From: Kutzneria sp. 744 | GTDB lineage: Bacteria; Actinomycetota; Actinomycetes; Mycobacteriales; Pseudonocardiaceae | Length of the DNA stretch: 54,445 nucleotides | NCBI RefSeq assembly: GCF_000568255.1 | Contig: NZ_KK037166.1 | Coordinates: forward strand, 10,958,458 to 11,012,902 | Reading direction: 5' to 3' | Shown: positions 19,565-34,960 of the stretch, in pieces | Layout of the letters: each line of letters opens with the position of its first letter | Position numbering within the stretch: the first letter of the stretch is position 1 | Notes under the pieces: model-generated | What the model was told of the DNA's origin: nothing | The model's database searches: none | The model's input: only the letters and a program-made list of their open reading frames with translations | Program-made: the position numbers and the translations under genes

Positions 19565-20866
19565 TCAGCGCCGCTTCCTCAACAACCCTCCCGCCACCAT
19601 CAATCCCACTAATCCCGCCGCCCCCTGCAAGATCCGGCGCTGGCGGCGGGCGCGGTCGCGGGCGTCGGCGTAGGGCATGGTGGTATTCGTGATCATGGCG
19701 TGCAGAGGCATCCATCGATGCCGCAAGGCCTTCTCCAACACCACGTCACAGGCCTTCTCCAGCCGAACGGCGGGGGAACGGACGGTGTCGCGGAGCTCGG
19801 CGAAGTTCTGGCGGGACATCTCGGCCAGGGCGTCGGTGTGGGGCTTGCGTCGCTGGTAGAACCGCTCGACGGCGTCCGGGGCCGAGGCAGGGAAGGCGGA
19901 GAAGGCATCGGCCAGCTCCAAGCCGTCCTCGAAGGCGGCGTTCATGCCCTGGGCCAGGAACGGGTACACGGCGTGGCAGGCGTCGCCGATGAGCACGACC
20001 TTGCCGTTGTGGTGCCAGGGAGAGGTCCGCGTGGTGACGAGCTTGAACGTGGGCTGGTCGAGGAAGACCTTGCCGACATCGGGCACGAGATCGAGGACGT
20101 CGGGGAACAGCTCACGGAACAGGGTCTCGACGTCGTCCGAGGTGCGAAGGGTGTCGAAGCTGCGAGGACCCCGGAACGGCAGCACGCAGGAGCAGGTGAA
20201 GGAGCCGTCACGGTTGGGGTGGGCGAACATCATGGTCTCGCCACGGGGCCAGAGGTGGAAAACGTCGTCGGCCATGCGGTGCTGGCCGTCGGCGCCGGCC
20301 GGGATGTGCAGTTCCCGCCAGCCCCATTCCAGGAACTCCTGGTGGAAGTCGGCCCGCTCGTCCCGGTGCATGTGCTTGCGCACGACGGAAAATGCGCCGT
20401 CGGCGCCGACGATGACGTCCGGGGTGACGGTGAACGCCGTGCCGGACTCGGAGACGAAGTCGGCGGCGGGGAGGTCCCGGTCGATGCCGACGCAGCGGGT
20501 GTCGAACACGAACCGCACGTTGGCCGACCGGGTGGCGGCCTCGATGAGCTGGACGCCGAGATCATGGCGCTGGATGGCCAGAATGCCGCCCTCGCCGTAG
20601 GTGGAGAAGCGCAGCGACCGGTCCTGGCTGTGCACGAGCCGGCCCCGCATGGGCATGACGTGTCGGGTGATCTCCTGCCGCAGACCGAGGCGCTCCAACG
20701 CCTTCAGCCCACGCTCGGACAGGCCGAGGTTCATCGAGGTGGTGTGCACGGCGTTGACCCGGGGATCGGGTCGCCGCTCGTACACGGTCACCGTGTGGCC
20801 CTGCCGGCCGAGGGCGAGCGCGAGGAACGCCCCGGCCATGCCGCCGCCGACTACCGCGAATTCCAC
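19565..20866 (-). CDS. FAD-dependent monooxygenase, kynurenine 3-monooxygenase-like
   Basis: 433 residues of the aromatic hydroxylase (PHBH) group. The FAD motifs are VVGGGMAG at residues 5-12, VGADGAFSVVRK in the middle, and GDACHAVYPFLAQGMNAAFED. The last block, with QGMNAAFED, is the signature shared with kynurenine 3-monooxygenase. A hydrophobic, basic C-terminal tail (GAAGLVGLMVAGGLLRKRR) could attach it to the membrane, also as in that family. The GTG start overlaps the stop of the upstream ATP-grasp gene by 16 bases. It is the last gene of the leftward operon, probably a tailoring hydroxylase; whether its substrate is kynurenine is open. Confidence 0.85.
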   Translation of the reverse strand: MEFAVVGGGMAGAFLALALGRQGHTVTVYERRPDPRVNAVHTTSMNLGLSERGLKALERLGLRQEITRHVMPMRGRLVHSQDRSLRFSTYGEGGILAIQRHDLGVQLIEAATRSANVRFVFDTRCVGIDRDLPAADFVSESGTAFTVTPDVIVGADGAFSVVRKHMHRDERADFHQEFLEWGWRELHIPAGADGQHRMADDVFHLWPRGETMMFAHPNRDGSFTCSCVLPFRGPRSFDTLRTSDDVETLFRELFPDVLDLVPDVGKVFLDQPTFKLVTTRTSPWHHNGKVVLIGDACHAVYPFLAQGMNAAFEDGLELADAFSAFPASAPDAVERFYQRRKPHTDALAEMSRQNFAELRDTVRSPAVRLEKACDVVLEKALRHRWMPLHAMITNTTMPYADARDRARRQRRILQGAAGLVGLMVAGGLLRKRR

Positions 20867-22119
20867 TGCGGACTCCCGGTCGTGACGACGTGCACCTGGT
20901 CGATCGCCTTCTCCGCCAACGCCACGGCCTCGGCGGCGGTGGGCGCCAGCACCATGACGGAGCCGATCCGGTCCCACGAGCTGCGCAGCTCCCGCACCGG
21001 ATCGCCGACGCCCGGCCCCATACCGAAGCTGACCACGCCGGGCATCTCTTGGGCGGCGTCGAGGCCGTCAATGCTGACGATCTCGCCCGGCGGCACCTGC
21101 ATGAACCGCACGGCGGCGGCCTGCGGCGCCACGGACGGCATCTCCGGCGGCTCCAGGCCGCGCATGACCGAGAAATAGCGCTCGCCGATCGGGTCCTCGT
21201 AGGCCCGCTCGATCATCTCGATGATGCCGTCGCCCGGGAACCGACCAGCGCACTCCACCAGGTACGGCGTGCCGTCGTCGCGGACGATCCACTCGCAGTG
21301 CACGACCCCGGAGCCGAAACCGACGGCCCGCAGCACCGCCAGTGTGCTCACGACCAGCTTGTCCCTCAACGCCAAGGGAATCGCCGCCGGCAGCACGTGC
21401 CCGAGCTCGACCGGCCGCGGCCCGGGGTAGAGGACCTTGTCGGTGATGTTGGCGAACAGCGACTGACAGTCGCGGACGACCATTTCCACGCTGTACTCGT
21501 GGCCGGCAACGTACTCCTCGACCAGCATGCGCACCGCCCGCTCACGGTCCGGCACGAACATGCCCTCATCGTGCTGAATACACGATTCCCAGGCCGCGGC
21601 AACGGAATCCGCGTCGTGCAGGACCTGCGTGCCGACCGCGCCCTGGCGATTGGCCGGCTTCAGGATCACCGGGACGCCGTGGGCGGCGATGAACGCGGTC
21701 ACCTCCTCCGGCGACCCGACCTCAGCGGATGCCGGATTGGGCACACCGGCGGCGCTGGTCACCCTGCGCAGCAAGGACTTGTCACGCAGCACCTCGGCCG
21801 CCCCCAGGCTGGCGCCGGGCGTCCCGAGCCGTTCGGCCAGCCGGGCGGCGAACGGCGTCGCGTACTCGACCAACGGGACCACGGCCGACGCGGCGAGATC
21901 AGGCCGACTGGCCAACAGCGTGTCGGCCGCACCGGGCAGTTGGTACTCCCACTCGACGAGCTCGCGCACCAGTGCCGATTCGGCAATGTGGTTGCGGACG
22001 TCCCGCTTGCGCACGACGTCCGGCTCCTCGACGATGATCAGCGACTGCTCGGGCAGGAACTCGGCCAGCTTGCCCAGCGCGGCCACGAAGCCCACCAGGA
22101 TGATCGGTCGTTCGGACAC
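20851..22119 (-). CDS. ATP-grasp carboxylate-amine ligase (1)
   Basis: 422 residues. The ATP-grasp core is visible: the ATP-binding lysine segment PVILKPANRQGAVGTQ near residue 150, the EEYVAGHEYSVEMVV strand and the metal-binding GTPYLVECAGRFPGDGI near residue 280. It most resembles the L-amino acid ligase/carnosine-synthase-like group, which joins a carboxylate to an amine through an acyl phosphate. It lies in an operon with a second ATP-grasp enzyme, so two amide bonds are likely in the product. It overlaps the downstream monooxygenase gene and begins 12 bases after the upstream gene. Confidence 0.88.
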   Translation of the reverse strand: MSERPIILVGFVAALGKLAEFLPEQSLIIVEEPDVVRKRDVRNHIAESALVRELVEWEYQLPGAADTLLASRPDLAASAVVPLVEYATPFAARLAERLGTPGASLGAAEVLRDKSLLRRVTSAAGVPNPASAEVGSPEEVTAFIAAHGVPVILKPANRQGAVGTQVLHDADSVAAAWESCIQHDEGMFVPDRERAVRMLVEEYVAGHEYSVEMVVRDCQSLFANITDKVLYPGPRPVELGHVLPAAIPLALRDKLVVSTLAVLRAVGFGSGVVHCEWIVRDDGTPYLVECAGRFPGDGIIEMIERAYEDPIGERYFSVMRGLEPPEMPSVAPQAAAVRFMQVPPGEIVSIDGLDAAQEMPGVVSFGMGPGVGDPVRELRSSWDRIGSVMVLAPTAAEAVALAEKAIDQVHVVTTGSPQWNSR

Positions 22120-22131
22120 GTCAGCGCTCCT

Positions 22132-23328: not shown

Positions 23329-23339
23329 CTGCTCACTCC

Positions 23340-24629
23340 TCACGCGTCGGTGTCCAACAGGCCGGCGGGCATCTCGAAGGCGGCATCGGCTTCCGGTGGC
23401 CCGATGGGCTGGGCGTCGACCTCGACCATGGCCGAGGTGTCGAGCAGCCGCCGCCGGCAGGTCGGCACGTCGTCGGCCTCGCACACCACGAAGGAATGAC
23501 GGGCCAGGTAACCACCCGGCGGCAGCCTCAAAGTGGTGCCGGGATCGACCATCGGCGACGCCGTCACCAGGCCTTCCGCCACGGAGGGCACCGTCACCGA
23601 TCGCACCACGCAGTCGGCGGCCGGCAGCCCGAAGCGGATCCCGGCCACGGAACGCTTGGACGGCGCGATGTCCGGCCGCTGCCCGGTGGCCACGTCGAAC
23701 AGAACGTCGCCGGAGTCGATACCGGTGGCGATCTTGCCCAGCAGCGGGATCAGGTCCCCGCCGACCCGGCCGTTGATCTCGATCACCACCGGGCCGTCCG
23801 CGGTCAGCCGCATCTCGCTGTGGGTGATGCCGTCCTCGATGCCCAGCGCGCGATGGGCCCGGGCCAGGGTGCACACCAGCGACTGGTCGGCCAGCAGCGG
23901 GTCGGCCGCGTCGACGACGTGCCCGATCTCCTCGAAGTACGGGTGCTCTCCGCTTTCTTTGCGGGCCAGGAACATCGGCAGGTACTCGCCCTTGTGCACG
24001 GCCCCGTCGACGCTGATCTCCGGGCCGTCGGCGTAACCCTCCACAATGGCCTGAGCACCGTAGACGCCCTGGTCCACTTCGCTGGCCGCCAGGGCGACGG
24101 CGAAGGCGGCGTCGAACTCCGACTCGTCCCGGGCCAGCACCACGCCGATGCTGGCGCCGAGCGCCCGGGGTTTCACCACTACCGGGAACCCGATGCCCAC
24201 AGCGGCTTCCCGTGCGACGGCCGGATCGGACGTCATGGCGTAACCGGGTTGAGGTAGGCCCGCAGCCGTCAGCAGATCACGGGTACGGTGCTTGTCGCGG
24301 CACCCGTGCACGCCGGCCAACCCCAGGCCAGGCACGCCGAACTCGGCCGCCAGCTCGCCGGCCGTCAACACGAGCGGCTCGTCCCAACACATCAGCCCGA
24401 CGATCTGCTTCTGTTCGGCGACCTTGCGGGCCTCGGCGATCATCACCGCCGGGTCGAACACGTCGGCCAGCACGATCTCGTCGAAGTACTCGCTCTGCCA
24501 GGTCGGCTTGAGATTGTTCAGCAGCACCAGACGCAGCCCGGCCTCACGGGCCCGGCGGTGGATGGAAGTGACCAGGTACTCCCGGTAGTACCGCAGCCCG
24601 CTGCCGATGACCAACAACACACCGTTCAC
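23340..24629 (-). CDS. ATP-grasp carboxylate-amine ligase (2)
   Basis: 429 residues. The N-terminal Rossmann-like domain is followed by the ATP-grasp core: VVVKPRALGASIGVV near residue 152, EGYADGPEISVDGAV near residue 200, then THSEMRLTADGPVVIEINGR and GGDLIP supplying Mg ligands. It is clearly distinct from ATP-grasp 1, so the pair is not a recent duplication. A ligase joining an amino acid or hydrazino acid to another amine is the family expectation. The GTG start overlaps by 4 bases (GTGA) the stop of a 26-codon frame that is itself coupled to the MFS gene. Confidence 0.88.
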   Translation of the reverse strand: MNGVLLVIGSGLRYYREYLVTSIHRRAREAGLRLVLLNNLKPTWQSEYFDEIVLADVFDPAVMIAEARKVAEQKQIVGLMCWDEPLVLTAGELAAEFGVPGLGLAGVHGCRDKHRTRDLLTAAGLPQPGYAMTSDPAVAREAAVGIGFPVVVKPRALGASIGVVLARDESEFDAAFAVALAASEVDQGVYGAQAIVEGYADGPEISVDGAVHKGEYLPMFLARKESGEHPYFEEIGHVVDAADPLLADQSLVCTLARAHRALGIEDGITHSEMRLTADGPVVIEINGRVGGDLIPLLGKIATGIDSGDVLFDVATGQRPDIAPSKRSVAGIRFGLPAADCVVRSVTVPSVAEGLVTASPMVDPGTTLRLPPGGYLARHSFVVCEADDVPTCRRRLLDTSAMVEVDAQPIGPPEADAAFEMPAGLLDTDA

Positions 24630-24706
24630 TGCGGCACCTCGCTAGCGCTCGGTGTCCGCGTTCGCGGACGTACTGCGTTGAATGATTCGCTCGCAAGCTC
24701 GCTCAT
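24626..24706 (-). CDS. possible 26-residue peptide ORF coupled on both sides
   Basis: The ATG at 24706 overlaps the MFS stop (ATGA), and its TGA overlaps the GTG of ATP-grasp 2 (GTGA). The peptide begins MSELASESFNAVRP and ends SASEVPQ; it is polar, with no Cys. Exact 4-base overlaps at both ends are what a translated operon gene would show. Against this, the stretch contains a perfect hairpin (24654-24669), and GAGCGAGC...GCGAATCATTC resembles a palindromic element that I recall as scattered through actinomycete genomes. If so, its open frame is incidental. The two readings are about equally likely. Confidence 0.4.
   Translation of the reverse strand: MSELASESFNAVRPRTRTPSASEVPQ
24654..24669. 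repeat. perfect 7+2+7 hairpin, REP-like element
   Basis: GTCCGCG at 24654-24660 and CGCGGAC at 24663-24669 pair perfectly over a TT loop. They lie in the 73-base space between the MFS gene and ATP-grasp 2. Flanking sequence (CTAGCGCTCG on one side, GCTCGCAAGCTCGCTC on the other) is also partly symmetrical. It could be an extragenic palindrome that tunes expression of the genes downstream. Confidence 0.6.
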
Positions 24707-25953
24707 GCCACGGCCTCCTCAGCGATCACCGGCTCCACCTCGGGTTCCGGCTTGACCTTGATGCCGGCCCAGGCCAGCGCGCCGGTGATGATGCCGAGCA
24801 CGGTCAGCACCGGGAAGAACACGTTGCCCAGCGCGGCCCACGCCAGCACGCCGACGATCGGCCCGAGCGCCTGGGCCATGCCCATGACCGAGCTGGTGAC
24901 GCCCAGATAGCGGGCCCGGTAGCGGGCGGGAGTCTTGGCCGGGCGGGCGAACATGGTCGGGCCGGACATCATCAGGCCTCCGGTGAACAGCGCGGCGCTG
25001 ATGATCACCGCCGCCGGGTTGCCCGAGGACAGGCCCCAGCCGACGAAGGCCAGCCCGAACACCACGTGGCCCAGGAACACCGCCAGCGAAGGCGGCCACT
25101 TCACGATGTACGAGGTGATCTTCAGCTCGCAGGTGATCAGCACGATGCCGGAGGTGGCCAGTACGAAGCTGTACAGGTCGGTGGACAGGCCGTCGGCGAC
25201 GATCTTCAGCGGCAGCGCGACCGTGTACTGGGCGTACACCACCGTCCCGATGAACACGGCGGCCAGGTACATCAGGAACCGGCCGTCCCGGGCCAGCACC
25301 GCGTAGGCCGAGCTGCGCGGCGCGTTCTCGCCGGGCGTGGGCTTCTCCTCCTCCGGCGCGACCACGTTGGGCAGCAGCGAGAACGCCAGCAGCGAGTACG
25401 CCAGCGCCGTCGCACCGTCCACATAGAACAGCAGGTCCCAGTTCACGCCGATGAACACGGTGGCCAGCAGCGCCGCGCCGGCCGCGCCGGCGTTGAGGGC
25501 GATGCGCATCATGGAGAACGCCATCACCTGGAACTTCTCCGGCATCAGTTCGGCCAGCATCACCGACGCCGCCGGCCGGTAGGCCTGCGTGACCAGGCCG
25601 GCCAGGCCCACGTCGAGTATGAGCAGCCAGAACGTGCCCGGCCCGCTCAGCAGTGGGATCAGCGCGACCAGCGGGCCGGACGCGGCCATCGCCAGCCCGA
25701 TGGTGTACCGGGTACCGAGCCGGTGCGCGAGCTCGCCGCCCAGTGTGCTGCCGATGATCGCGCCGACGGCGTAGGCGACCAGGCCGACGCCGGCCAGCTC
25801 CGCCGTGACGCCGCGGTGCACCAGGTACAGCAGCAGGAAGGACTGGACGAACGCGCCCAGCTGGTTGAGCAGCATGCCGCCGAGCAGGTACCGGATCGAC
25901 GTCGGTGTCGCCCTGATCGCGGCGAGCACGCCGTCGGACGCCCTCTCGTTCAT
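24703..25953 (-). CDS. MFS transporter
   Basis: 416 residues with about 12 hydrophobic segments. The loop GGELAHRLGTRYTIGLAM near residue 75 matches the MFS signature between segments 2 and 3. It is an inner-membrane secondary transporter, and its place inside the biosynthetic operon suggests export of the product and self-protection. Its ATG overlaps the stop of the DAO gene (ATGA at 25950-25953), and its stop overlaps the small frame downstream. Confidence 0.88.
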   Translation of the reverse strand: MNERASDGVLAAIRATPTSIRYLLGGMLLNQLGAFVQSFLLLYLVHRGVTAELAGVGLVAYAVGAIIGSTLGGELAHRLGTRYTIGLAMAASGPLVALIPLLSGPGTFWLLILDVGLAGLVTQAYRPAASVMLAELMPEKFQVMAFSMMRIALNAGAAGAALLATVFIGVNWDLLFYVDGATALAYSLLAFSLLPNVVAPEEEKPTPGENAPRSSAYAVLARDGRFLMYLAAVFIGTVVYAQYTVALPLKIVADGLSTDLYSFVLATSGIVLITCELKITSYIVKWPPSLAVFLGHVVFGLAFVGWGLSSGNPAAVIISAALFTGGLMMSGPTMFARPAKTPARYRARYLGVTSSVMGMAQALGPIVGVLAWAALGNVFFPVLTVLGIITGALAWAGIKVKPEPEVEPVIAEEAVA

Positions 25954-26948
25954 GCTGTTGCCTCCATGGCCTCGACGATCGTGCGAGCAACGAGCGGTGC
26001 GGCGGCGAAACCCGAGCCGCCGCAGGCGGGCCGGACCCACAGTCCCGGCCCGAAGTGGTGGAGCAGTGGGCCGCCGGTGCCGGGATCGGTGGCGTAGTGG
26101 CATTCCCGCACCGCCACCACCTGGTAACGGTCCATTTCGGACAGAATCGGCTCGGCCAGCAGCCGGTCGACCCACGGCCCGGGTTCGCCGCCGGCCGTGG
26201 AGTCCACGTCGCGGCACACCAGGTCCGAACTGATCTTGAGCAGGGTTCCGTCGCCCGGCGGCAGCAGCCAGGCGCGGCAGTCCGCGCCCAGACCGCCCGC
26301 GCCGGGTGCGTGTTCCCACCACGCCGCCAGATCGGCCGGCGGGCGCAGGTACACCATGGTCTGCCGATACAGCTTCACCGGGATGTCGACCAGTTCACGG
26401 CTCCACGGCCCGGCCGCGACGACTACGACGTCCGCCCCGAGGGCGGTACCGTCCACAAGCGACACCCAATGCTCCGCGACGAATTTCACCGAGCACTCCG
26501 GCCGCACGGTCACGTTGGGCCGCCTGGACAACCATCGTGCAGCAGCATCCAGGAACCGGTCCGCCAAAAGGACTCCAGCGTCGGCGTCGAGCACACCGAC
26601 CGTGTCATGGGGGAATCTGATGTGCGGCAGCTTCTCCGGCTCCACGACGGTCAGTGCCCCGACCTCGTTCCGCGGCCAGGCCGTCACGATGCCGACCTGG
26701 CGGAAGAACCGCTCGCCCAGCAACGACTCCAGCTCCAGCCAGCATGTGCGGGCCGACGCGAACTGGGCCGTCATGACGGGGTCGCCGGGCCGCAGCACCC
26801 GCAGTGCTCGGTGCTGGTCGGCCGACGTGGACGCCGGGTTGGGGATGGGGCCGCGGTCGAGCAGCGTCACGCGGTGTCCCACCCGCGCGCACTCGATCGC
26901 CGTCACCATCCCCGTGACCCCGGCGCCGACGACAACGATGCTGGACAT
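25950..26948 (-). CDS. DAO-type FAD-dependent oxidoreductase (glycine/D-amino acid oxidase-like)
   Basis: 332 residues. The dinucleotide motif VVVGAGVTGMVTAIECAR is at residues 5-22, and the C-terminal FAD contact is RPACGGSGFAAAPL. The family oxidises amines or amino acids to imines. In the s56-p1 (Spb39) and triacsin (Tri27) pathways, as I recall, an enzyme of this type follows the hydrazine synthetase and oxidatively cleaves the lysine-derived hydrazine to release hydrazinoacetate. The same role fits here, since the gene directly follows the MetRS-like gene with a 1-base overlap (TGATG). Substrate is inferred, not shown. Confidence 0.85.
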   Translation of the reverse strand: MSSIVVVGAGVTGMVTAIECARVGHRVTLLDRGPIPNPASTSADQHRALRVLRPGDPVMTAQFASARTCWLELESLLGERFFRQVGIVTAWPRNEVGALTVVEPEKLPHIRFPHDTVGVLDADAGVLLADRFLDAAARWLSRRPNVTVRPECSVKFVAEHWVSLVDGTALGADVVVVAAGPWSRELVDIPVKLYRQTMVYLRPPADLAAWWEHAPGAGGLGADCRAWLLPPGDGTLLKISSDLVCRDVDSTAGGEPGPWVDRLLAEPILSEMDRYQVVAVRECHYATDPGTGGPLLHHFGPGLWVRPACGGSGFAAAPLVARTIVEAMEATA

Positions 26949-28483
26949 CAGCCGCCGGCCCCGGTCAGGCGCGGCAGTGGAGTGGGAGTGACCGTCACGG
27001 CGTCCTGGCGGGCCGGGATCGTGGTGTCCGGTAGTGCGGCGCCCGCGAGGTCGATCAGCACCGGGGCGGCGCAGCGGAGGAACACATCGACTTCGTGGCA
27101 CAGGTCGCCGGCGGTCTCCTTGGTCACCCCTGCCGCCATCTGGTCCAAGCGGGCCAACTGTTCTGACATCGTCGACGCCACGGCAGTGAGGCTGAAGCGC
27201 CGCACGCCGTACCCGGCGGCGAACCGGTCGACCATCCGCTGCGCGGACCGCCGCGACCGCTCGGACACCGGCAGCGCACCGCGGCCCACCCACGCGTCGA
27301 CCGCCGCCGCAACGCGGTTCCACGGCCGGACCAGACGCGTGTCGGTGACGCGGACCAGGGCCTCGCGGGTGAAGTCGGTGCGCTGGAACTCGGGGCTGGT
27401 GGCCGACAGGTGGAACCGGATCAGGTCCCGCGGCACCTCGGCCGCCAGCTCCCGCCCCGACACCACGTGACCGCGGCTGGTGGAGAACTTCTCGTTGGCC
27501 AGCTCATAGAAGTCGTTGGTGACGTACTGTGCCGGCACCACGTACTCGCCCAACGCCGTCAGCATCGCCGTGCCGACGACTGCGAACGGATACGTGGCGT
27601 CCAGACCGGTGAAGTAGACGACGGTCGTGCCGGAGTCCTTGCGCCACAGCTCATCGTCCGACTTGAGGACCGCGCCCCGCCGCTCGGCCGCCAGCGCCGT
27701 GGTGAACATGCTCCACGGCATGCCCTCCATGTGCGGGTAGATCACCTGGCCCGGCACCTCGGGGAACGGCGCCGGGATGCCCCACGAGGTCGGCTGCGTG
27801 ATGGGGAAGTCGGGCAGCGGCCCGGCCATCACGTCCTCGATCATCTGCGCCATGTGCGGGCGCATGGTTGTCCCCGCGAAGTACGCGGTCAGCTCGGCCC
27901 GGTACTCCTCGACCGGGAACACCAGGATCTCCGCCTCGCGGATCTCCAGGGGCTCGTCCGGGTACAGCGTCGAGCGGGGGTCGAGCAGATCCCCGGGCGC
28001 GACCGGCAGGCCGCAGCTCTCGCAGATGCCGGCGTACCCGGTGGCCAGGCAGAACGGGCAGCCGCCGAGCACGTAGGCGTCCATCAGGTACTCACCGGTG
28101 CTCGGCAGGTACGGGAAGCGCCAGGTGCGGAGCTTCAGCCGGTCCTGGCTGTGCAGCCGGTCGTAGAAGTCCAGCACCATCTTGGTGAACCGGTCGCCGA
28201 TGCAGCCGAAGCCGTCCACCTCTATGCCCATGGCCGCCAGCGTCCGTTCGACCTGCTCGGCCGACCGCACCCGGAGGTGCTCCGGGGACACGCCCAGCTT
28301 GCGCGCGGCCGTGACCACATAGTTCTGGGTGAAGTGCATGCCGGTGCCGTACAAGGCCTCCACGCCGGTGGCACGGGCGTAGCGGGTGCATACGTCGGCG
28401 GCCAGGAAGGGACCGGCCAGGTGGCCGACGTGGAGGTCGCCGTTGGCCGTCGGCGCCGGCGAGATGATCACCAGCCGTTCCAT
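26948..28483 (-). CDS. stand-alone MetRS-like enzyme, predicted half of a split hydrazine synthetase
   Basis: 511 residues with class I aminoacyl-tRNA synthetase features of methionyl type. The HIGH-like motif HVGH is at residues 18-21, the zinc knuckle is C142/C145 with C154/C157, and the KMSKS-like KFSTSR is at 332-337. A helical C-terminal part follows. In a biosynthetic operon beside an N-hydroxylase and a DAO enzyme it matches the MetRS-like half of cupin-MetRS hydrazine synthetases (Spb40, Tri28). There that half activates an amino acid and esterifies it to an N-hydroxyamine. No cupin domain is fused here; a separate cupin is encoded at 30906. A drug-resistant MetRS copy is the main alternative. 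Confidence 0.85.
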   Translation of the reverse strand: MERLVIISPAPTANGDLHVGHLAGPFLAADVCTRYARATGVEALYGTGMHFTQNYVVTAARKLGVSPEHLRVRSAEQVERTLAAMGIEVDGFGCIGDRFTKMVLDFYDRLHSQDRLKLRTWRFPYLPSTGEYLMDAYVLGGCPFCLATGYAGICESCGLPVAPGDLLDPRSTLYPDEPLEIREAEILVFPVEEYRAELTAYFAGTTMRPHMAQMIEDVMAGPLPDFPITQPTSWGIPAPFPEVPGQVIYPHMEGMPWSMFTTALAAERRGAVLKSDDELWRKDSGTTVVYFTGLDATYPFAVVGTAMLTALGEYVVPAQYVTNDFYELANEKFSTSRGHVVSGRELAAEVPRDLIRFHLSATSPEFQRTDFTREALVRVTDTRLVRPWNRVAAAVDAWVGRGALPVSERSRRSAQRMVDRFAAGYGVRRFSLTAVASTMSEQLARLDQMAAGVTKETAGDLCHEVDVFLRCAAPVLIDLAGAALPDTTIPARQDAVTVTPTPLPRLTGAGG

Positions 28484-29757
28484 CAGGCGCTCCTCAGCTC
28501 GCCGCGGCGGGCCAGCAGGTCGTTGACGATGTCCTGCGACCGGTGGGCCAGCACGCTGATCAGCGAGTCCGCGATACCGTGCGTGCCCTCGTTGACGCCC
28601 TGCAGATACATGGCGCCCCAGGTGGAGTCGCCGAGGTCGACGCGGTAGCAGCGGCTGACCGTGACCTCGTCCAGGCCGACCCGGTCGGCCAGGTCGCGGA
28701 CCATCTCCGGCATCCGCTGGTCGAAGCCGGTGCCGACCAGCACGACGTCGCAGCGCAGCGGCTCGACCTTGCCGCTGGTCCGGTCACGCAGGTCCAGAAC
28801 CACCTCGTCGCCGTCCATGCGAGCGCCGACGACCTCGGTCAGGGCCCGCACCCGTGACCGTTCCTGGCCGACACCGCGCTGCTGGTACAGCATGGTGTAG
28901 AGCTGCTCCAGGAACGGCGGCGCCAGGCCCGCGTAGTTGGTCAGGTGCATCTCGTCCAGCAGCTGCTTGCGGACCTCGGGCGCGCTGTCGTAGAAGGTGT
29001 CCACAAAGGACGGGAAGAACAGCTCGTTGACGAACTTGCTGGTCTGGTAGTTCTGCAGGCCGATGGAGCGGACCACCATGGTCAGCTCGCTGTTGGGCAG
29101 GTTCTGATGCAGCGCCATGAACATCTCGGCCGCGCTCTGCGCCCCGCCGACCACGACCGCGCGCAGCGGCGCCTCGGACGGCAGCGCGGCGATTCTGGTC
29201 CGATACTGTGCGCTGTGGATGACCCGGTCCGACGGCAGGTCGGCGAAGACCGCCGGGACGTGCCGGTCCCGGCCGCCGCCCACCACCAGGTCCCGACAAC
29301 GGATGGTGTCGCCGCCGTGCAGCGTGACCGTCCACCCGGTGATCGACCCGTCCGCGGCGCGGGTCGGCTCGATGCACTGGGCCCGCGAGTTGAACCGGAT
29401 GTTCACCCGGTCCAGTGAGCGGGCCACCCACTGGAGGTAGTCGGAGATCTCCCAGCGGAACGGGTTGAAGGTGCCCAGGTTCACGAACTCGTCCAGGCGC
29501 CCGGAGTCGTGCAGGAAGTTCAGGAAGGAGAACTTGCTGCGCGGGTTGCGCAGCGTCACCAGGTCCTTGAGGAACGACACCTGGCTGCGTGCCCACGGCA
29601 TCAGCAGGTCGCGCTGCCACTTGATGTCCGGGCTCTGGTCCAACAGCAGCGTCTCGTCGGCCAGTGCGTCCGAACCGGACTCCTCGATGGCCACCGCGAG
29701 CGCCAGGTTCGCCGGCCCCGCGCCGATGGCAAGCAAGCCCACCTCTTGGTCAGTCAC
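28483..29757 (-). CDS. L-ornithine/L-lysine N-monooxygenase
   Basis: 424 residues of the SidA/IucD/PvdA flavin N-hydroxylase family. The FAD motif IGAGPANLALAVAI begins at residue 11, the NADPH motif is VVVGGAQSAAEMF near 206, and the late VLVGTGFDQRMPEM is the ATGY-like segment. It hydroxylates the side-chain amine of ornithine or lysine, using NADPH and O2. No siderophore synthetase is nearby, so it more likely supplies the N-hydroxy amine for N-N bond formation. The GTG at 29757 is preferred over an upstream ATG because it starts the family N-terminus. It is the first gene of the leftward operon, and its stop overlaps the next start by 1 base. Confidence 0.88.
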   Translation of the reverse strand: MTDQEVGLLAIGAGPANLALAVAIEESGSDALADETLLLDQSPDIKWQRDLLMPWARSQVSFLKDLVTLRNPRSKFSFLNFLHDSGRLDEFVNLGTFNPFRWEISDYLQWVARSLDRVNIRFNSRAQCIEPTRAADGSITGWTVTLHGGDTIRCRDLVVGGGRDRHVPAVFADLPSDRVIHSAQYRTRIAALPSEAPLRAVVVGGAQSAAEMFMALHQNLPNSELTMVVRSIGLQNYQTSKFVNELFFPSFVDTFYDSAPEVRKQLLDEMHLTNYAGLAPPFLEQLYTMLYQQRGVGQERSRVRALTEVVGARMDGDEVVLDLRDRTSGKVEPLRCDVVLVGTGFDQRMPEMVRDLADRVGLDEVTVSRCYRVDLGDSTWGAMYLQGVNEGTHGIADSLISVLAHRSQDIVNDLLARRGELRSA

Positions 29758-29854
29758 AGCTGCACCTCGTTCATCGTGATCGATTCGCACGCCGAGCCGG
29801 TGGCTTCAGGCGGTGACGGGTGATGTGCCGAGCGAGTGACCAGCTCGTGACCCG

Positions 29855-29890
29855 ATGCTATGGTCGGGCCCTTCCCTGTAGATAGGGAAG
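29855..29890 (-). promoter_or_regulatory. candidate promoter and activator site for the leftward operon
   Basis: CTTCCCT at 29871-29877 and AGGGAAG at 29884-29890 form a perfect 7+6+7 inverted repeat. On the minus strand TAGCAT (29860-29855) makes a plausible -10 element, which places the repeat over the -35 region where a LuxR-type activator would bind. The start codon of the N-monooxygenase is about 98 bases further on. The flanking gap 29758-30076 also holds TTGACA at 30020-30025, a possible -35 for the regulator gene. Confidence 0.5.
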
Positions 29891-30076
29891 CTTTGCCCGT
29901 CCGGCGGGGAATCTGCCGGCGCCGGCGTGCTTTCAGCGGTAGTGACTAGTCGCTTCGGGGGGATCGCACCCCTGGTCTTTTGTGCCGCAACTAACGTTGT
30001 CAGGTGGCGGTTCGCTAGCTTGACATCCCAGATGGGCGGGCACTGGGGGGAGCCTGAGGACCTTTTGGGGGACCAC

Positions 30077-30787
30077 ATGACTCACCCGGCACAGATCGAG
30101 GGTTTGTTCGCGGGCGGACGACACGGCGCCACCCTGGAGACCGTCACGGTGCTGCTGGCCGACGCACATCCCGTCGCCCGCAGGCGGATCCGGTCCACGT
30201 TGGAGCGAGACGGCGGCTGCGTGGTGCTCGGCGAGGCCACCACCGCCGCCGAGACCTTCGCCGAGACCGCATGGCACCGGCCGGACGTGCTGGTCGTCGA
30301 CCCGCACCAGTTCGGCCCGCTCGACGTGGCCGGCATGATCGGTCATGTGGCCCGGATCGCGCCCGGCACAAGGGTTCTCGTCGTCACCTCGGTCGACGAC
30401 GACGCGGCCGTGCGGTCCGCGCTGCACGCCGGCGCCCGGGGCTACCTGGTCGCCGCCGACGCCGATGCCGACCAGGTGTTGCGCGGGGTTCAGGTGGTGG
30501 CCAACGGAGAGGTCATCGTCGGCCGGTCCGTGGCCGGCCGGCTGCCGGCGCTGTTCAGCCCGACCGGCGGGCACGTGCCGTATCCCTTCCCGCAGCTGAC
30601 CGCCCGGGAACAGCAGGTGCTGGAACGGATCGCGGCCGGCAAGTCCAACCTGGCCATCGCCCGCGACCTGGCGCTGGCCCCCAAGACCATCAGCAACCGG
30701 GTCTCCTCGGTGCTGGGCAAGCTCGGCGTCAACGACCGGGCCCAGGCCATCGTGCTGGCCCGCGACGCCGGCCTCGGGCGCGGCTGA
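30077..30787 (+). CDS. LuxR/NarL-type orphan response regulator, probable cluster regulator
   Basis: 236 residues. A receiver-like domain (about residues 22-140) keeps one acidic residue (LLADAH), the phosphoacceptor-like Asp in VVDPHQFGP and the Thr in VVTSVDD, but the conserved Lys is replaced (GYLVAADAD). It may thus work without phosphorylation. A LuxR helix-turn-helix ends the protein (LTAREQQVLERIAAGKSNLAIARDLALAPKTI). No kinase gene adjoins it. The ATG at 30077 has GGGGGA upstream; the frame is open further but non-coding in style. Its position between the two operons suggests that it activates both. Confidence 0.85.
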   Translation: MTHPAQIEGLFAGGRHGATLETVTVLLADAHPVARRRIRSTLERDGGCVVLGEATTAAETFAETAWHRPDVLVVDPHQFGPLDVAGMIGHVARIAPGTRVLVVTSVDDDAAVRSALHAGARGYLVAADADADQVLRGVQVVANGEVIVGRSVAGRLPALFSPTGGHVPYPFPQLTAREQQVLERIAAGKSNLAIARDLALAPKTISNRVSSVLGKLGVNDRAQAIVLARDAGLGRG

Positions 30788-30803
30788 CCCCGTTGGCGGG
30801 CAA

Positions 30804-30865
30804 GGGATTTCCCCGCGTTGTGGGATAACTTCCCCTACCGGCCGGGAAACATCCGACATTAGCCT
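30804..30865 (+). promoter_or_regulatory. candidate promoter and activator sites for the rightward operon
   Basis: GGGATTTCCC at 30804-30813 fits the core GGGAWWTCCC that I recall for PAS-LuxR regulators such as PimM. GGGATAACTTCCCC follows at 30822-30835. TAGCCT at 30860-30865 is a possible -10, so the second motif abuts the -35 position. The half-site TTCCC/GGGAA is shared with the repeat in front of the leftward operon. The spacings differ, so a common regulator is an inference. Confidence 0.45.
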
Positions 30866-30905
30866 CGGTCAGCGTCAACAGGATTCGGCTGATCGGAGTG
30901 GGGAC

Positions 30906-31310
30906 GTGACCGACCAAGAGCCCGTGGCCGTGGACATCCGCCGACTGGAGCACGAGAATCTGGTCCGCGCCTACGGACTGGAGATGAAGCTGCTCTACCC
31001 GTGGGACGGCCTGACGGCCCCGTTCGAGGGCGCCTGGTGCGTGCTGCGGCCGGGCGACACGTCGGTGACGCATGCCCACCACGAGCACGAGATCTTCATC
31101 GGCATGGCGGGCCGCGCCGAGGTGGTGACGCCCGCCGAGCGCTATGCGTTCAACGCCGGGGACGTCGCCTTCCTGCGTCCCGGCATCGAGCACCATCTGA
31201 CCAACGCGGGCGACGAGGACTTCGCCTACTACGCGATCTGGTGGGACCGGGCGATGTCCGAGGGCTTCGTCAAGCAGGAGGAGGAGCGCGCCGCCGGTGG
31301 TGGTCGGTGA
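30906..31310 (+). CDS. stand-alone cupin, predicted half of a split hydrazine synthetase
   Basis: 134 residues of single-domain cupin. Motif 1 is complete: Gly50, His56, His58, Glu62 and Gly69 (GDTSVTHAHHEHEIFIGMAG). Motif 2 is GDVAFLRPGIEHHLTN at 85-100 with His96 and Asn100. These residues form a metal site, zinc in characterised hydrazine synthetases. In those fused enzymes the cupin part rearranges an aminoacyl ester of an N-hydroxyamine into an N-N bond. This gene opens the arm opposite the MetRS-like gene, which is why I propose a two-protein synthetase. Many small cupins do other things, so the pairing needs testing. The GTG start follows GGAGTGGGG; the stop overlaps the next GTG. Confidence 0.82.
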   Translation: MTDQEPVAVDIRRLEHENLVRAYGLEMKLLYPWDGLTAPFEGAWCVLRPGDTSVTHAHHEHEIFIGMAGRAEVVTPAERYAFNAGDVAFLRPGIEHHLTNAGDEDFAYYAIWWDRAMSEGFVKQEEERAAGGGR

Positions 31311-31639
31311 TCGACTACGACGGCCGCCGGTTCCGCAAGGAGGGAGCCGGCGACGCGCCGGTGGCCGTGTACCGGCAGCGCGGCGACGTCGTGTGGACGG
31401 AGGTCTCCGGCGGCCCGGTGCTGCGCTGTTCCGTCACGGGGGTGCGGGATTCCCGAGACATCCTCCACATGGGATACACGATCGTGCTCGACTCCGGGGA
31501 CGTGATCTGCGGTCGCACCGTGAACACGCCGGAGGTGGCCGACGACGGCCGGATCCGGCTGCGCGAGCAGTGGGAGCGGTACGGCGCGCATGCCGCCACC
31601 GGCACGTCCTACCTCGAAGAGGTGAGGGATCTCAGATGA
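31307..31639 (+). CDS. small predicted beta-barrel protein of unknown function
   Basis: 110 residues starting MIDYDGRRFRKEG (GTG). Alternating hydrophobic strands, the segment HMGYTIVLDSGDVICGRTVNTPEV and the ending IRLREQWERYG suggest a small avidin- or lipocalin-like barrel. I recall similar short proteins often labelled N-acetylglutamate synthase in databases, a name that looks unjustified because no GNAT motif is present. The GTG overlaps the cupin stop (GTGA), and its own stop overlaps the next ATG (ATGA). It is tightly coupled to the pathway and may bind or protect an intermediate. Confidence 0.75.
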   Translation: MIDYDGRRFRKEGAGDAPVAVYRQRGDVVWTEVSGGPVLRCSVTGVRDSRDILHMGYTIVLDSGDVICGRTVNTPEVADDGRIRLREQWERYGAHAATGTSYLEEVRDLR

Positions 31640-33009
31640 AGTCACCGTCCGAACAGGACTGGCGACGGCTCGGCCGGGCCGTGACAGGCCGTGTGCTCCG
31701 CCCTGGGGACAACGGCTTCGGGGCCGTGAGCACGCCGTTCAACCGGCGCTACGCCGCGACCGTGCCGGCCGGCGTCGTGTCCGTGGCCTCCACCGTCGAT
31801 GTGCAACGGGCCATCGCCTGGGCCCGGGACGTCGGCGTCGGCGTTGCCGTGCGGGGTGGAGGGCACAGCTACGCCGGCTTCTCCGTCGGCCCTGGCCTCG
31901 TGATCGACCTCGGCGCGCTGAACACCGTGTCCGCCAGCGCTTCCACCGGCCTCGTGACGGCCGGCGGCGGTGCTTCGATGTCCACCGTGTACGCCGCGAT
32001 CGAGCCGTGCGAGATGGCCTTCGCGCTCGGCAACGGCGCCTCGGTCGGCATCGGTGGGCTGACCCTCGGCGGCGGTTACGGGGCGACGTCTCGGGTGCAT
32101 GGAATCACCGCCGACGCACTGGTGGCGACGACGCTCGTGACCGCCGACGGGGAGGTGCTTCGCTGCGACGCCAACGAGAATGCCGACCTGTTCTGGGCTT
32201 GTCGCGGCGGTGGCGGCGGCAACTTCGGCGTGAACGTGTCTTTCACGTTCCAGGCCGAGCCCGTGTCCGACTGCGCCACCTACGTGCTGCTGTGGCGGAT
32301 GGAGGACGCGGAGAAGGTGTTCTCGGTGGTGCAGGAGACTGTCCGTTCGGCACCGGATGCGTTCGCCGCCCGCGTCGGCGTGAGCACCACGGGGGCGGAC
32401 GCGATCGTGTCGTGCATCGGGCAGCACCTGGGCCCGGCGTCGGAGCTGCGGGAGATCCTCGATCCCGTGCTGTCGGTGGCGCAGCCGTTCCGCGTGATGA
32501 TCGAGGATCGAACCTATTGGCAGGCCAGGGATGATCTGCTGCACGACACCTCGGCCGGCGCCTTCGCGGCCCGGACCAGTGTGCTGACCCAGCCGTTGCC
32601 GGACGACGCCATCAGCGCGATGTTGGCACAGGTGCGTCGATGGCCCGGCGGCGGGAATGCCGACGGCGGCGGGGCGGCCCTGTTCTCGTGGGGCGGTGCC
32701 GTGAATCGGGTTCCCGTGGCCGACACCGCTTTTCCGCACCGCGAAGCGAAGTTCCTGCTGTCCATGGACACCTCGTGGGCGGAGGACGATCCCAGTGCGG
32801 TGGTGGACGCCAACCTCGGGTGGCTGGAGGAGTTGGCCGCCTCCATGGCTCCGTACGGCGGCGATCGTTCGTACCTGAACTTCACCGATCCCGACCTGAA
32901 GTCCTGGCGCAGCGCTTACTACGGGAACAACTACCCGCGGCTGGCCGAGATCAAGCGGCGGGTCGACCCGGACGGCTTCTTCGCCTTCGAGCAAGGGATC
33001 GGGTCATGA
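31636..33009 (+). CDS. BBE-type FAD-linked oxidoreductase, mono-covalent flavin
   Basis: 457 residues of the berberine-bridge/VAO family. The FAD-attaching His77 is in VRGGGHSYAG. The second attachment Cys of bicovalent members is absent: the matching segment GNGASVGIGGLTLGGG has Gly134 there. The C-terminal BBE segment YYGNNYPRLAEIKRRVDPDGFF is intact and carries the usual NYP. No signal peptide is present, so it acts in the cytoplasm, unlike many secreted relatives. It should oxidise an alcohol, amine or C-C bond, giving for example a hydrazone or ring. It is coupled on both sides by ATGA overlaps. Confidence 0.87.
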   Translation: MKSPSEQDWRRLGRAVTGRVLRPGDNGFGAVSTPFNRRYAATVPAGVVSVASTVDVQRAIAWARDVGVGVAVRGGGHSYAGFSVGPGLVIDLGALNTVSASASTGLVTAGGGASMSTVYAAIEPCEMAFALGNGASVGIGGLTLGGGYGATSRVHGITADALVATTLVTADGEVLRCDANENADLFWACRGGGGGNFGVNVSFTFQAEPVSDCATYVLLWRMEDAEKVFSVVQETVRSAPDAFAARVGVSTTGADAIVSCIGQHLGPASELREILDPVLSVAQPFRVMIEDRTYWQARDDLLHDTSAGAFAARTSVLTQPLPDDAISAMLAQVRRWPGGGNADGGGAALFSWGGAVNRVPVADTAFPHREAKFLLSMDTSWAEDDPSAVVDANLGWLEELAASMAPYGGDRSYLNFTDPDLKSWRSAYYGNNYPRLAEIKRRVDPDGFFAFEQGIGS

Positions 33010-33647: not shown

Positions 33648-33652
33648 GGGGC

Positions 33653-34960
33653 ATGGATCCTATTGACGAGTACGTGGCGCGGCACGGCGACCGGCACGAG
33701 CGGGAGCTCGCGGAGTGGGTTGCCGTGCCGAGCGTCAGCGCTACCGGGGAGGGCATGGTCGAGGCCGCTGCTTACGCTCGTGAGCTGCTGGTTCGCAGCG
33801 GCCTGACGCCTCGGGTGGTGGAGACCGTGGGTTGGCCACTGGTCGTCGGGCACGCTGCCGGTCCGGGTCCGCATGTGGTGATCTACGGCCATTACGACGT
33901 ACAGCCGGCCGGTCCGTTGGGGGAGTGGGACAGTCCGCCGTTCGAGGCCGTCATCAGGGACGGTCGCATGTTCGGGCGCGGCACCGGCGACAACAAGGGC
34001 CAGCACCTTGCCCAGTTGTTGGCGTTGAGGGCCTTGCGGGACTGCTTTGGGCAGTTGCCGTGCGAGGTCACCGTCATCCTCGACGGGGAGGAGGAGATCG
34101 GCAGCCCCAACCTGGCGTCGACCCTGGCCGGCATGCGGACGGAGCTGAACGCCGACGTCGCCCTGTACAGCGACGGGCCGGTGAACGCCGGCTACGAGCC
34201 GACCGTCTCTTTGGGCGTCCGTGGTGTCGTGAGCTTCGAGATCACCGTTCGCGGGGCCGGGGCCGTCTTCCACTCCGGCAACTGGGGCAACGTGGCGCCG
34301 AATCCGGCGTGGGAGCTCGTGTGGCTGCTCGGCACCATGCGTTCCCCGGACGGCCGGATCCTCATCGAGGGCTACGACGCCGGCATCACCCCGTTGACTC
34401 CCGCCGAACTCGCCGCGTTGGCCGCCCTCCCCGTGAGCTCCGGTCTCGATCGTATGGACGTCGTCGCCGGCTCCGTCAACGAGCGGCTGGCCCTGCCGAC
34501 CTTCTCCGTCAACTCTCTGACCTGCCTCGACAACAACGAGCACCGCACCGTCATCCCCGCTGTGGCCGTTGCCCGCTGCGACATGCGCCTGGCCGGCGGT
34601 CAGCGGACAACAACTGTTGTCGAGGCTGTCCGTGCGCATGTCAACCGCCATCTCCCGCACGCCGAGGTCACCGTCAAGGCCTTGATGGAGCCCTCTCGCA
34701 CCCTCCCCGACGCCCCTTTCGCGCAGGTCGTCCTCGATGCCGTCGGCGCCGACCGGCCCGCCCTCTTCGAGCCCGCCATGGGCGGCAGCCTCCCCATCGC
34801 CGGCCTCACCGACGGTCTCGGCGTGCCCTGCTACGGCATACAGCTGGCCAACGTCGACGAGCGCAACCACGCCCCCAACGAGAACTTCGAGCTCCGCCGC
34901 TTCCACGCCGGCATCCGCACCGCCGCCCGCGTCCTGCAGGCCCTCGGCCGCGCCGGTTGA
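33653..34960 (+). CDS. M20-family dipeptidase/deacylase
   Basis: 435 residues. Metal ligands and catalytic residues are visible: YGHYDVQPAG near residue 82, GRGTGDNKGQ near 107, DGEEEIGS near 144 and ERNHAPNE near 405. It resembles cytosolic dipeptidases (carnosinase type), and so is the natural counterpart of the carnosine-synthase-like ATP-grasp ligases in the other arm. It could unmask a peptidyl precursor or cleave the product for self-protection. The AGGGGG ribosome binding site overlaps the stop of the previous gene. It is the last gene of the rightward arm and is distinct from the M20 gene at 10748. Confidence 0.85.
   Translation: MDPIDEYVARHGDRHERELAEWVAVPSVSATGEGMVEAAAYARELLVRSGLTPRVVETVGWPLVVGHAAGPGPHVVIYGHYDVQPAGPLGEWDSPPFEAVIRDGRMFGRGTGDNKGQHLAQLLALRALRDCFGQLPCEVTVILDGEEEIGSPNLASTLAGMRTELNADVALYSDGPVNAGYEPTVSLGVRGVVSFEITVRGAGAVFHSGNWGNVAPNPAWELVWLLGTMRSPDGRILIEGYDAGITPLTPAELAALAALPVSSGLDRMDVVAGSVNERLALPTFSVNSLTCLDNNEHRTVIPAVAVARCDMRLAGGQRTTTVVEAVRAHVNRHLPHAEVTVKALMEPSRTLPDAPFAQVVLDAVGADRPALFEPAMGGSLPIAGLTDGLGVPCYGIQLANVDERNHAPNENFELRRFHAGIRTAARVLQALGRAG

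What the first reader, a model, noticed from the sequence alone, without database searches (positions are those of the whole stretch)
19565..34960. Candidate undescribed N-N bond (hydrazine) biosynthetic cluster with a split cupin/MetRS synthetase
Seen: an ornithine/lysine N-hydroxylase (28483), a MetRS-like enzyme (26948) and a DAO-type flavoenzyme (25950) in one operon, and a complete single-domain cupin (30906) opening the divergent operon. Known: in s56-p1 (Spb38-40) and triacsin (Tri26-28) biosynthesis the same set makes hydrazinoacetate, but there the cupin and MetRS-like parts are fused in one protein. Inference: here the synthetase works as two proteins, and the accessory genes (two ATP-grasp ligases, an ACAD-like flavoenzyme, BBE and KMO-like oxidases) build an unknown N-N compound.
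Basis: partly seen in the sequence, partly recalled or inferred. Interest (0 to 1): 0.88.

Follow-up and report, generated by a model that had tools for sequence, protein, structure and literature searches.

The report
Split hydrazine-synthetase gene cluster, Kutzneria type
A soil actinomycete carries a conserved, uncharacterised gene cluster that very probably joins two amino acids through a nitrogen-nitrogen bond using two separate proteins; the two-protein layout is already known, but the altered amino-acid pocket and the tryptophan-type oxidase in the cluster point to a product not yet described.

Summary
An N-hydroxylase, a MetRS-like protein, a DAO-type flavoenzyme and a separate single-domain cupin lie in two divergent operons (19565-34960), with two ATP-grasp ligases, an HsaA/ACAD-like oxygenase, BBE and KMO/VioC-like flavoenzymes and an MFS exporter. 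The MetRS groups with hydrazine-synthetase MetRS-likes, not with the genome's own MetRS, and the cupin keeps the RHS1 metal/Glu positions. So "N-N cluster" is well supported. "Split synthetase = new" is not: standalone cupin plus MetRS was described in 2010, assayed in 2021 (RHS1) and appears in albofungin. New here: the cluster family (72 loci) has three MetRS pocket types (Trp253 of E. coli MetRS becomes His, Asp or Asn). Only the window's His type carries DUF6875 (14 of 14 loci) and the FMO (13 of 14). A conserved operator, TTCCC-N8-GGGAA, lies at cluster promoters in 14 of 14 His and 19 of 23 Asp loci and in 0 of 35 Asn loci. The amino acid used and the product remain unknown.

The parts
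28483..29757 (-). NOH: flavin N-hydroxylase (Lys/Orn type), makes the hydroxylamine partner (inferred)
   Evidence: PF13434 E 2e-85; present in 72 of 72 His/Asp/Asn loci
26948..28483 (-). METRS: MetRS-like ligase, activates an amino acid and esterifies the hydroxylamine (inferred)
   Evidence: PF09334 E 3e-59; KFSTS (332-336) and C142/C145/C154/C157 invariant, H18/G20/H21 invariant in 12 aligned sequences; tree
25950..26948 (-). DAO-type FAD oxidase, inferred C-N cleavage of the hydrazine
   Evidence: PF01266 E 9e-26; beside METRS in most relatives
24703..25953 (-). MFS exporter
   Evidence: PF07690 E 3e-29
23340..24629 (-). LIG1: ATP-grasp ligase
   Evidence: PF13535 E 5e-18; the NCBIfam hits shown are all below cut-offs, incl. 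BacD 58 of 850 bits
22132..23328 (-). ACAD-fold flavin oxygenase, HsaA-like
   Evidence: PF08028 E 4e-16; HsaA best NCBIfam hit, 131 bits vs cut-off 450
20851..22119 (-). LIG2: ATP-grasp ligase with LAL_C2
   Evidence: PF18603 E 3e-23
19565..20866 (-). FMO: FAD monooxygenase, VioC/KMO-like
   Evidence: PF01494 E 6e-28; VioC best NCBIfam hit, 165 bits vs cut-off 760
29872..29889 (.). operator candidate TTCCCTGTAGATAGGGAA between NOH and the regulator
30032..30787 (+). NarL/LuxR-type regulator, likely binds the operator (inferred)
   Evidence: GerE E 1e-16, Response_reg 4e-9; co-occurs with motif
30809..30826 (+). imperfect operator copy TTCCCCGCGTTGTGGGAT upstream of the cupin
30906..31310 (+). 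CUPIN: standalone zinc-type cupin, rearranges the ester to the hydrazine (inferred)
   Evidence: PF07883; H56/H58/E62/H96 align with RHS1 D63/H65/E69/H103
31307..31639 (+). SMALL: 110-aa protein of unknown function, conserved in the cluster family
   Evidence: no Pfam/NCBIfam hit; found in 48 of the 80 loci clustered
31636..33009 (+). BBE-type FAD oxidase
   Evidence: PF01565, PF08031
33006..33647 (+). DUF6875 protein, heme 'P422' family candidate (tryptophan oxidation in known members)
   Evidence: PF21780 E 3e-60; PMC13307353 passages
33653..34960 (+). M20 peptidase, accessory seen only in same-genus loci at >=45% identity
   Evidence: PF01546 E 4e-27; 2 of 14 His-type loci besides the window

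Best explanation
A secondary-metabolite cluster built on a two-protein hydrazine synthetase. NOH hydroxylates the side-chain amine of lysine (or a shorter diamino acid). METRS adenylates a second amino acid and passes it to the hydroxylamine oxygen. The separate cupin rearranges the O-acyl hydroxylamine to the N-N bond. The DAO-type flavoenzyme then cleaves a C-N bond to release a hydrazino acid. ATP-grasp ligases couple this unit to another residue; in this Kutzneria/Amycolatopsis subfamily that residue, or the METRS substrate itself, is probably an indole or other aromatic unit processed by DUF6875 and the FMO. BBE and the ACAD-like oxygenase oxidise further and the MFS protein exports. The NarL-type regulator drives both operons through TTCCC-N8-GGGAA, which keeps the two halves of the synthetase co-expressed. 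Shown here: gene content, homology, conservation, catalytic residues, and the joint occurrence of pocket type, accessory genes and motif. Inferred: every chemical step, the regulator-operator contact and the aromatic nature of the product.
For: Family hits. Profiles of the window families recover the two halves of fused enzymes and the R. jostii RHA1 system: cupin to L058 E 4e-20, Mesorhizobium L142 E 2e-15, RHS1 E 2e-13; MetRS to the same three E 3e-80, 1e-71 and 2e-59. In a 53-row tree the genome's canonical MetRS and a second MetRS-type protein are split off with 98/97 support; no cupin or N-hydroxylase lies beside the second one in the about 4 kb held. Metal/Glu positions: H56, H58, E62 in 73 of 73 cupins, H96 in 72 of 73 (7 genomes are counted twice there). 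Accessory pattern at >=45% identity: DUF6875 in 14 of 14 His-type loci, FMO in 13 of 14; both 0 of 23 Asp, 0 of 35 Asn and 0 of the 16 remaining loci. The Asp-type Kutzneria buriramensis L067, sister to the His clade in the tree (93/84), lacks both in the stretch held. DUF6875 is otherwise rare: 3 of 296 phylum genomes including this one at E <= 1e-10. Motif: 36 hits in 14 of 14 His loci (shuffle mean 0.25), 24 hits in 19 of 23 Asp loci (0.1), 0 in 35 Asn, 2 W-type and 12 other loci. Purifying selection. Mechanism of the enzyme family: PMC8664883, PMC11705231.
Against: No chemistry is shown. The DAO of this family is not detectably close to the DAO of an azaserine-like cluster (no hmmsearch hit at E<=10; hhalign probability 58% over 182 columns, while the FMO family, which should have another role, scores 91%), so the cleavage step and its regiochemistry are uncertain. 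The pocket mapping rests on sequence alignment, not a structure, and I defined the three types by the residue itself; in the tree the His type is one clade (9 rows, 100/100) but the Asp type is not (L067 groups with His) and the Asn rows are scattered. Pocket and accessory genes may go together by descent, not function. Eight further exact copies of the motif occur elsewhere in the 11.6-Mb genome, and the copies upstream of the window's cupin are imperfect. The family is sparse: in a 296-genome phylum sample no other genome has a METRS relative above 37% identity.
Confidence: 0.72

Rival explanations
1. Ordinary hydrazinoacetate chemistry with a split enzyme: glycine plus N6-hydroxylysine, then Spb39-type cleavage; only the later tailoring differs from s56-p1, triacsin and azaserine.
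For: Same three enzyme classes side by side; glycine is the partner in s56-p1, triacsin and azaserine (PMC11705231, PMC10445470, passages).
Against: Pocket differs: position 251 is H/D/N by type while it is W in 24 of 31 MetRS-likes outside the three types; 257 is W and 300 is F in 72 of 72 family members against A and W in 17 of those 31. The azaserine-like fused L058 has W at 251. The DAO is only superfamily-like. None of 14 cluster genes is a succinyltransferase, adenylase or carrier protein by Pfam. No assayed glycine enzyme was in hand as sequence to fix the glycine code.
Confidence: 0.18
2. The MetRS-like protein is a peptide or ester ligase giving a Met-Lys type dipeptide, as proposed in 2010, and the cupin does something other than N-N bond formation.
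For: Prediction in PMC2922099 for this very class of neighbourhoods; two ATP-grasp ligases present.
Against: Later assays of PyrN and RHS1 show hydrazine formation (PMC8664883); the RHS1 metal/Glu positions are kept; most Met-contacting positions are changed against the own canonical MetRS.
Confidence: 0.06
3. A hydroxamate siderophore cluster: the N-hydroxylase feeds a peptide made by ATP-grasp ligases, and MetRS and cupin are auxiliary.
For: N-hydroxylase and ligases present; MFS exporter.
Against: Pfam shows no acyltransferase, IucA/IucC, NRPS or iron-uptake domain among the 14 genes; METRS has the lowest or near-lowest dN/dS of the cluster.
Confidence: 0.04

Closest known systems
R. jostii RHA1 system (standalone MetRS-like protein plus RHS1 cupin, N6-hydroxylysine + Glu)
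   Same: Two separate proteins, N-hydroxylase alongside, an ATP-grasp gene nearby (L139); same metal/Glu positions except H56 for D63
   Different: 31% MetRS identity; the window's DAO profile finds nothing in the 13 kb fetched, and a saccharopine dehydrogenase is reported there instead (PMC2922099, PMC8664883); other pocket residues
Albofungin Afn8/Afn9/Afn18
   Same: Separate MetRS-like and cupin genes with a lysine N6-hydroxylase (PMC11705231, passages)
   Different: Feeds an aromatic polyketide through an asparagine-synthase-like hydrazine transferase; sequences not compared here
Spb38-40, Tri26-28, AzsLMN (hydrazinoacetate cassettes)
   Same: N-hydroxylase, DAO-type oxidase, cupin plus MetRS functions
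   Different: Fused cupin-MetRS (with a carrier domain in AzsN), glycine used, succinyl/carrier-protein logic in triacsin and azaserine (PMC10445470, PMC11705231, passages); the azaserine-like fused L058 lies outside the window clade in the tree
Pantoea ananatis pOC5aB and Deinococcus ficus pDFI1 clusters
   Same: N-hydroxylase - cupin - MetRS - FAD oxidoreductase, then ATP-grasp (an MFS gene between in Pantoea)
   Different: W-type pocket, a substrate-binding-type protein, no DUF6875 annotated in the stretch; products not known to me
ZigI and other DUF6875 'P422' heme enzymes
   Same: DUF6875 domain (PF21780 E 3e-60)
   Different: ZigI acts in a pyranoquinolone-diterpenoid pathway; the passages seen mention no hydrazine synthetase (PMC13307353)

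Membership tests
MetRS-like/cupin hydrazine synthetase family | MetRS-like ligase distinct from tRNA-charging MetRS, with signature motifs intact | tested here: met
   Tree split 98/97 from the genome's own MetRS; HVGH at 18-21 and KFSTS at 332-336. Anticodon_3 is not detected in METRS but is in the own MetRS; it is weakly detected in fused L058 and L142, so this is no discriminator
MetRS-like/cupin hydrazine synthetase family | Cupin with RHS1-type metal ligands and essential Glu | tested here: met
   H58, E62, H96 = H65, E69, H103; D63 replaced by H56, as in fused L058 and L142
MetRS-like/cupin hydrazine synthetase family | Co-encoded N-hydroxylase | tested here: met
   PF13434 E 2e-85; NOH in 72 of 72 His/Asp/Asn loci
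MetRS-like/cupin hydrazine synthetase family | ATP-dependent hydrazine product | not testable with these tools
   needs an enzyme assay
Hydrazinoacetate cassette (Spb38-40, Tri26-28, AzsLMN) | Cupin and MetRS fused in one protein | tested here: not met
   separate genes 30906-31310 and 26948-28483 on opposite strands
Hydrazinoacetate cassette (Spb38-40, Tri26-28, AzsLMN) | Spb39/AzsM-type DAO | tested here: inconclusive
   same Pfam DAO family but no hmmsearch hit between the families, hhalign 58%; L058 is only an azaserine-like stand-in
Hydrazinoacetate cassette (Spb38-40, Tri26-28, AzsLMN) | Glycine-specific MetRS pocket | tested here: inconclusive
   pocket differs from W-type relatives and from L058 but no assayed glycine enzyme sequence was in hand
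DUF6875 'cytochrome P422' enzymes | DUF6875 domain | tested here: met
   PF21780 203.7 bits vs cut-off 24.5
DUF6875 'cytochrome P422' enzymes | Heme binding and tryptophan oxidation | not testable with these tools
   the defining preprint is not held; H145, H187, C57 and C148 are invariant in 18 cluster homologues, duplicates included, but the published motif was not seen

The most novel reading that the evidence does not exclude
The family is one conserved hydrazine-making chassis whose MetRS gatekeeper has been re-plumbed (Trp253 to His, Asp or Asn, with Trp at 257 and Phe at 300) to accept amino acids not yet seen in any hydrazine synthetase, each type paired with its own tailoring set. In the window's subfamily a heme P422 enzyme and a VioC-like oxygenase make or finish an indole-bearing hydrazine peptide, a natural-product class with no known member, all run by one NarL-type regulator and its TTCCC-N8-GGGAA operator.
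Probability: 0.3. Interest if true: 0.75.

Novelty: new variant of a known kind. Interest (0 to 1): 0.5.

Why it matters
MetRS-like proteins are described as the gatekeepers that set which amino acid enters an enzymatic N-N bond (PMC8664883), and the review passages I saw list only Gly, Ala, Ser, Glu and Tyr as partners (PMC11705231). Three naturally diverged pockets on one conserved chassis, in Kutzneria, Amycolatopsis, Lentzea, Kitasatospora, Nocardia and other actinomycetes, give a ready test set for new specificities. The joint occurrence with a DUF6875 heme enzyme would link P422-type tryptophan chemistry to hydrazine chemistry; I found no such link in print (one paper in the library holds 'DUF6875'). 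The operator gives a handle to switch the cluster on.

Tried and rejected
The title claim of novelty by splitting was rejected on the literature. The idea that DUF6875 might be a second N-N forming heme enzyme of the KinJ/FzmP kind was checked and dropped: KinJ is a much longer protein (residues up to R570 are named) and DUF6875 is described as tryptophan-oxidising. The PEP-mutase-like genes of 27 loci were examined for the recalled EDK..NS mutase motif; none matched ED-K, so a phosphonate product is not suggested. A link to Pantoea natural products was sought and not found. PDB entries 9l8v/9vq4, the closest solved MetRS-likes, could not be tied to a paper. Structure prediction of the 110-aa protein could not be run: the machine was busy at every try. 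The sigma-70 scan gave 1 site (shuffles 0.7) and the terminator scan 7 (shuffles 4.7, sd 2.6), no clear excess. No supplementary files were read; the eight-residue specificity code of Matsuda 2024 was not available. Searches behind 'not in print': in a library without most subscription journals; listings only, except the papers named. What was seen of each paper: PMC8664883 sections 10 and 12 and passages; PMC2922099 section 7 part 1 and passages; PMC12154649 part 1 of 7 and passages; PMC11705231, PMC13307353, PMC13061610, PMC13274452 and PMC10445470 passages only. The P422 preprint and Matsuda 2024: nothing seen but mentions in other papers.


Full report
What is there. The window is G000:C1:10958458-11012902 of an 11.6-Mb genome. 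The nearest named relative of the cluster is Kutzneria sp. CA-103260 (94% MetRS identity). A home-made gene caller trained on the window with Pfam and NCBIfam scans gives two divergent operons. Minus strand: N-hydroxylase NOH, METRS, DAO, MFS, ATP-grasp LIG1, HsaA/ACAD-like oxygenase, ATP-grasp LIG2, FMO. Plus strand: NarL-type regulator, CUPIN, SMALL (110 aa), BBE, DUF6875, M20 peptidase. Junctions in the minus operon run from a 16-bp overlap to a 73-bp gap; CUPIN-SMALL-BBE-DUF6875 overlap by 4 bp each. dN/dS against three relatives is below 1 for every gene compared (0.05-0.71).

Family membership. Profiles built from the window's relatives find both halves of fused enzymes (azaserine-like L058 with cupin, MetRS and carrier domain; Mesorhizobium L142) and the R. 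jostii RHA1 proteins (L139). Zhao et al. worked on the RHA1 pair and report that zinc in RHS1 is held by Asp63, His65, Glu69 and His103 (PMC8664883, sections 10 and 12 and passages). The window cupin has H56, H58, E62 and H96 there; E62 is invariant in 73 of 73 cupins collected (7 genomes counted twice). In a 53-row tree the genome's canonical MetRS (L001) and a second MetRS-type protein (L003) part from all MetRS-likes with 98/97 support; the two fused proteins group together with 100/100, away from the window's clade. No cupin or N-hydroxylase lies beside L003 in the stretch held. The tree program warns of long branches for several outgroup rows, L058 and L142 among them, so the deep order is unsure.

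The split is not new. Iyer et al. 2010 (PMC2922099; passages and section 7 part 1) already noted MetRS paralogues that lack the fusion but have a standalone cupin next door, always with a lysine N6-monooxygenase, and often with ATP-grasp genes; a dimethylargininase is named too. Zhao et al. [quoted passage not shown] The review PMC11705231 (passages only) lists albofungin Afn8/Afn9 and several protein pairs. Plasmid searches show the same split order in Pantoea ananatis and Deinococcus ficus.

A cluster family with three pockets. A scan of the GTDB species collection for two peptide patterns gave 126 stretches, 90 relatives, 80 kept. Twenty more stretches came from a 200-genome sample of the same family, in which 38 genomes match at E <= 1e-40; I took all 16 non-own places of 57% identity or more and 4 more distant ones, of 49 non-own places listed. 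Of these 100 loci, 8 duplicates were dropped and 4 (L122, L125, L133, L138) had no MetRS ORF that passed my filter, leaving 88. By contrast a 296-genome sample of the phylum shows no other genome with a relative above 37% identity, so the family is concentrated in some lineages. Position 251 of METRS corresponds to E. coli W253; the mapping was checked on 3h97, whose altered residues 13, 260 and 301 fall where expected (residue numbers and variant recalled). I sorted loci with more than 50% identity by this residue: His 14, Asp 23, Asn 35, Trp 2, Arg 1, Ser 1; 12 loci are more distant. Outside the three types it is Trp in 24 of 31 MetRS-likes and in both own MetRS proteins; positions 257 and 300 are Trp and Phe in 72 of 72 His/Asp/Asn members but Ala and Trp in 17 of those 31. 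The sorting is by the residue itself: in the tree His is one clade (9 rows, 100/100), Asp is not (L067 joins His, 93/84) and Asn is scattered.

Accessory genes follow the type. DUF6875 is in 14/14 and FMO in 13/14 His loci (at >=45% identity) and in none of the other 74. L067, the Asp-type sister of the His clade, shows neither in the stretch held. B12-radical-SAM genes are in 18 and two ACAD genes in 17 of 23 Asp loci; flavin reductase in 23 and PEP-mutase-like genes in 26 of 35 Asn loci (only loci from L059 up were clustered for these counts, so 10 of 14 His, 21 of 23 Asp and 33 of 35 Asn loci could score). The core NOH-CUPIN-METRS-DAO-LIG1-SMALL-BBE is contiguous in many Asn-type loci. Many loci are cut at contig ends or at 10 kb, so the absence of SMALL, BBE or CUPIN in Asp loci (8, 1 and 9 of 23 show them) is no proof of loss. 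The flavin reductase lies next to ACAD or BBE in 23 loci and next to ACAD itself in 12, which favours a reduced-flavin oxygenase over a dehydrogenase.

DUF6875. [quoted passage not shown] Only 3 of 296 phylum genomes, the own genome included, hold a relative at E <= 1e-10, so its presence in 14 of 14 His-type clusters ties it to this pathway. With the VioC-like FMO beside it, an aromatic, probably indole, component is my inference.

One regulon. TTCCC-N8-GGGAA occurs 36 times in 14 of 14 His loci (31 of them mostly intergenic; mean of 20 dinucleotide shuffles 0.25) and 24 times in 19 of 23 Asp loci (all intergenic; shuffles 0.1), but 0 times in 35 Asn, 2 W and 12 other loci (86 of the 88 scanned); all 28 loci with the NarL regulator in the fetched stretch carry it, 5 Asp loci have the motif without a regulator in view and 4 have neither. 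In His loci the sites sit before NOH, between the regulator and CUPIN, and in Amycolatopsis before the separate MFS-LIG1-ACAD-LIG2 operon; in most Asp loci one site lies before NOH or METRS or before the second NOH. In the window the exact site is 29872-29889 and an imperfect one lies at 30809-30826 before the cupin. The own genome holds 9 exact sites in 11.6 Mb (control pattern: 2). I infer that the regulator binds it and so keeps the two halves of the synthetase in step.

Mechanism and doubts. The reaction order follows the assayed family (PMC8664883, PMC11705231) and is inference for this cluster. Weak points: the DAO resembles the azaserine-like DAO only at superfamily level; which amino acid METRS uses is unknown; SMALL is unexplained (no Pfam or NCBIfam hit; relatives in 10 of 296 phylum genomes including the own). 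ATP-grasp ligation, oxidation and export follow from family labels only. In azaserine biosynthesis an acyl-CoA-dehydrogenase homologue oxidises the hydrazine to a hydrazone (PMC10445470, passages); the window's ACAD may do that or hydroxylate.

Verdict. What deserves attention is the conserved family, the pocket change, the DUF6875 link and the operator.

Noticed in passing
window 37939-38379: A second, divergent ribosomal protein L11 gene (122 bits, below the L11 cut-off of 141.85); the better-scoring copy is at 6.57 Mb. A paralogue of a thiopeptide target may matter for self-protection.
   Followed up: partly
window 47493-49133: A 546-aa GltX-like glutamyl-tRNA synthetase, slightly under the bacterial GltX cut-off (273 vs 290 bits); no other relative was found in the genome at E <= 1e-5.
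   Followed up: partly
window 35628-37958: A molybdopterin oxidoreductase that stays near the cluster in two other same-genus loci (L039, L040); role unclear.
   Followed up: no
L058 and L045 (genome G182): One genome carries both a His-type split cluster (L045) and an azaserine-like cluster with a fused cupin-MetRS-carrier protein (L058).
   Followed up: partly
L106, L143, L060 and other loci: DDAH-like proteins (dimethylarginine hydrolase family) recur in His- and Asn-type clusters, two copies in L106.
   Followed up: partly
L068-L071, L073-L075, L080, L123: Several Asp-type clusters carry a second N-hydroxylase, 68-79% identical to the window's NOH, usually before LIG1.
   Followed up: no
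plasmid collection: 187 of 305 plasmid records that match the MetRS-like protein at E <= 1e-20 are Escherichia; whether these are cupin-linked or ordinary MetRS copies was not looked at.
   Followed up: no
G000, eight places listed: Eight other exact TTCCC-N8-GGGAA sites in the genome; neighbouring genes not examined.
   Followed up: no
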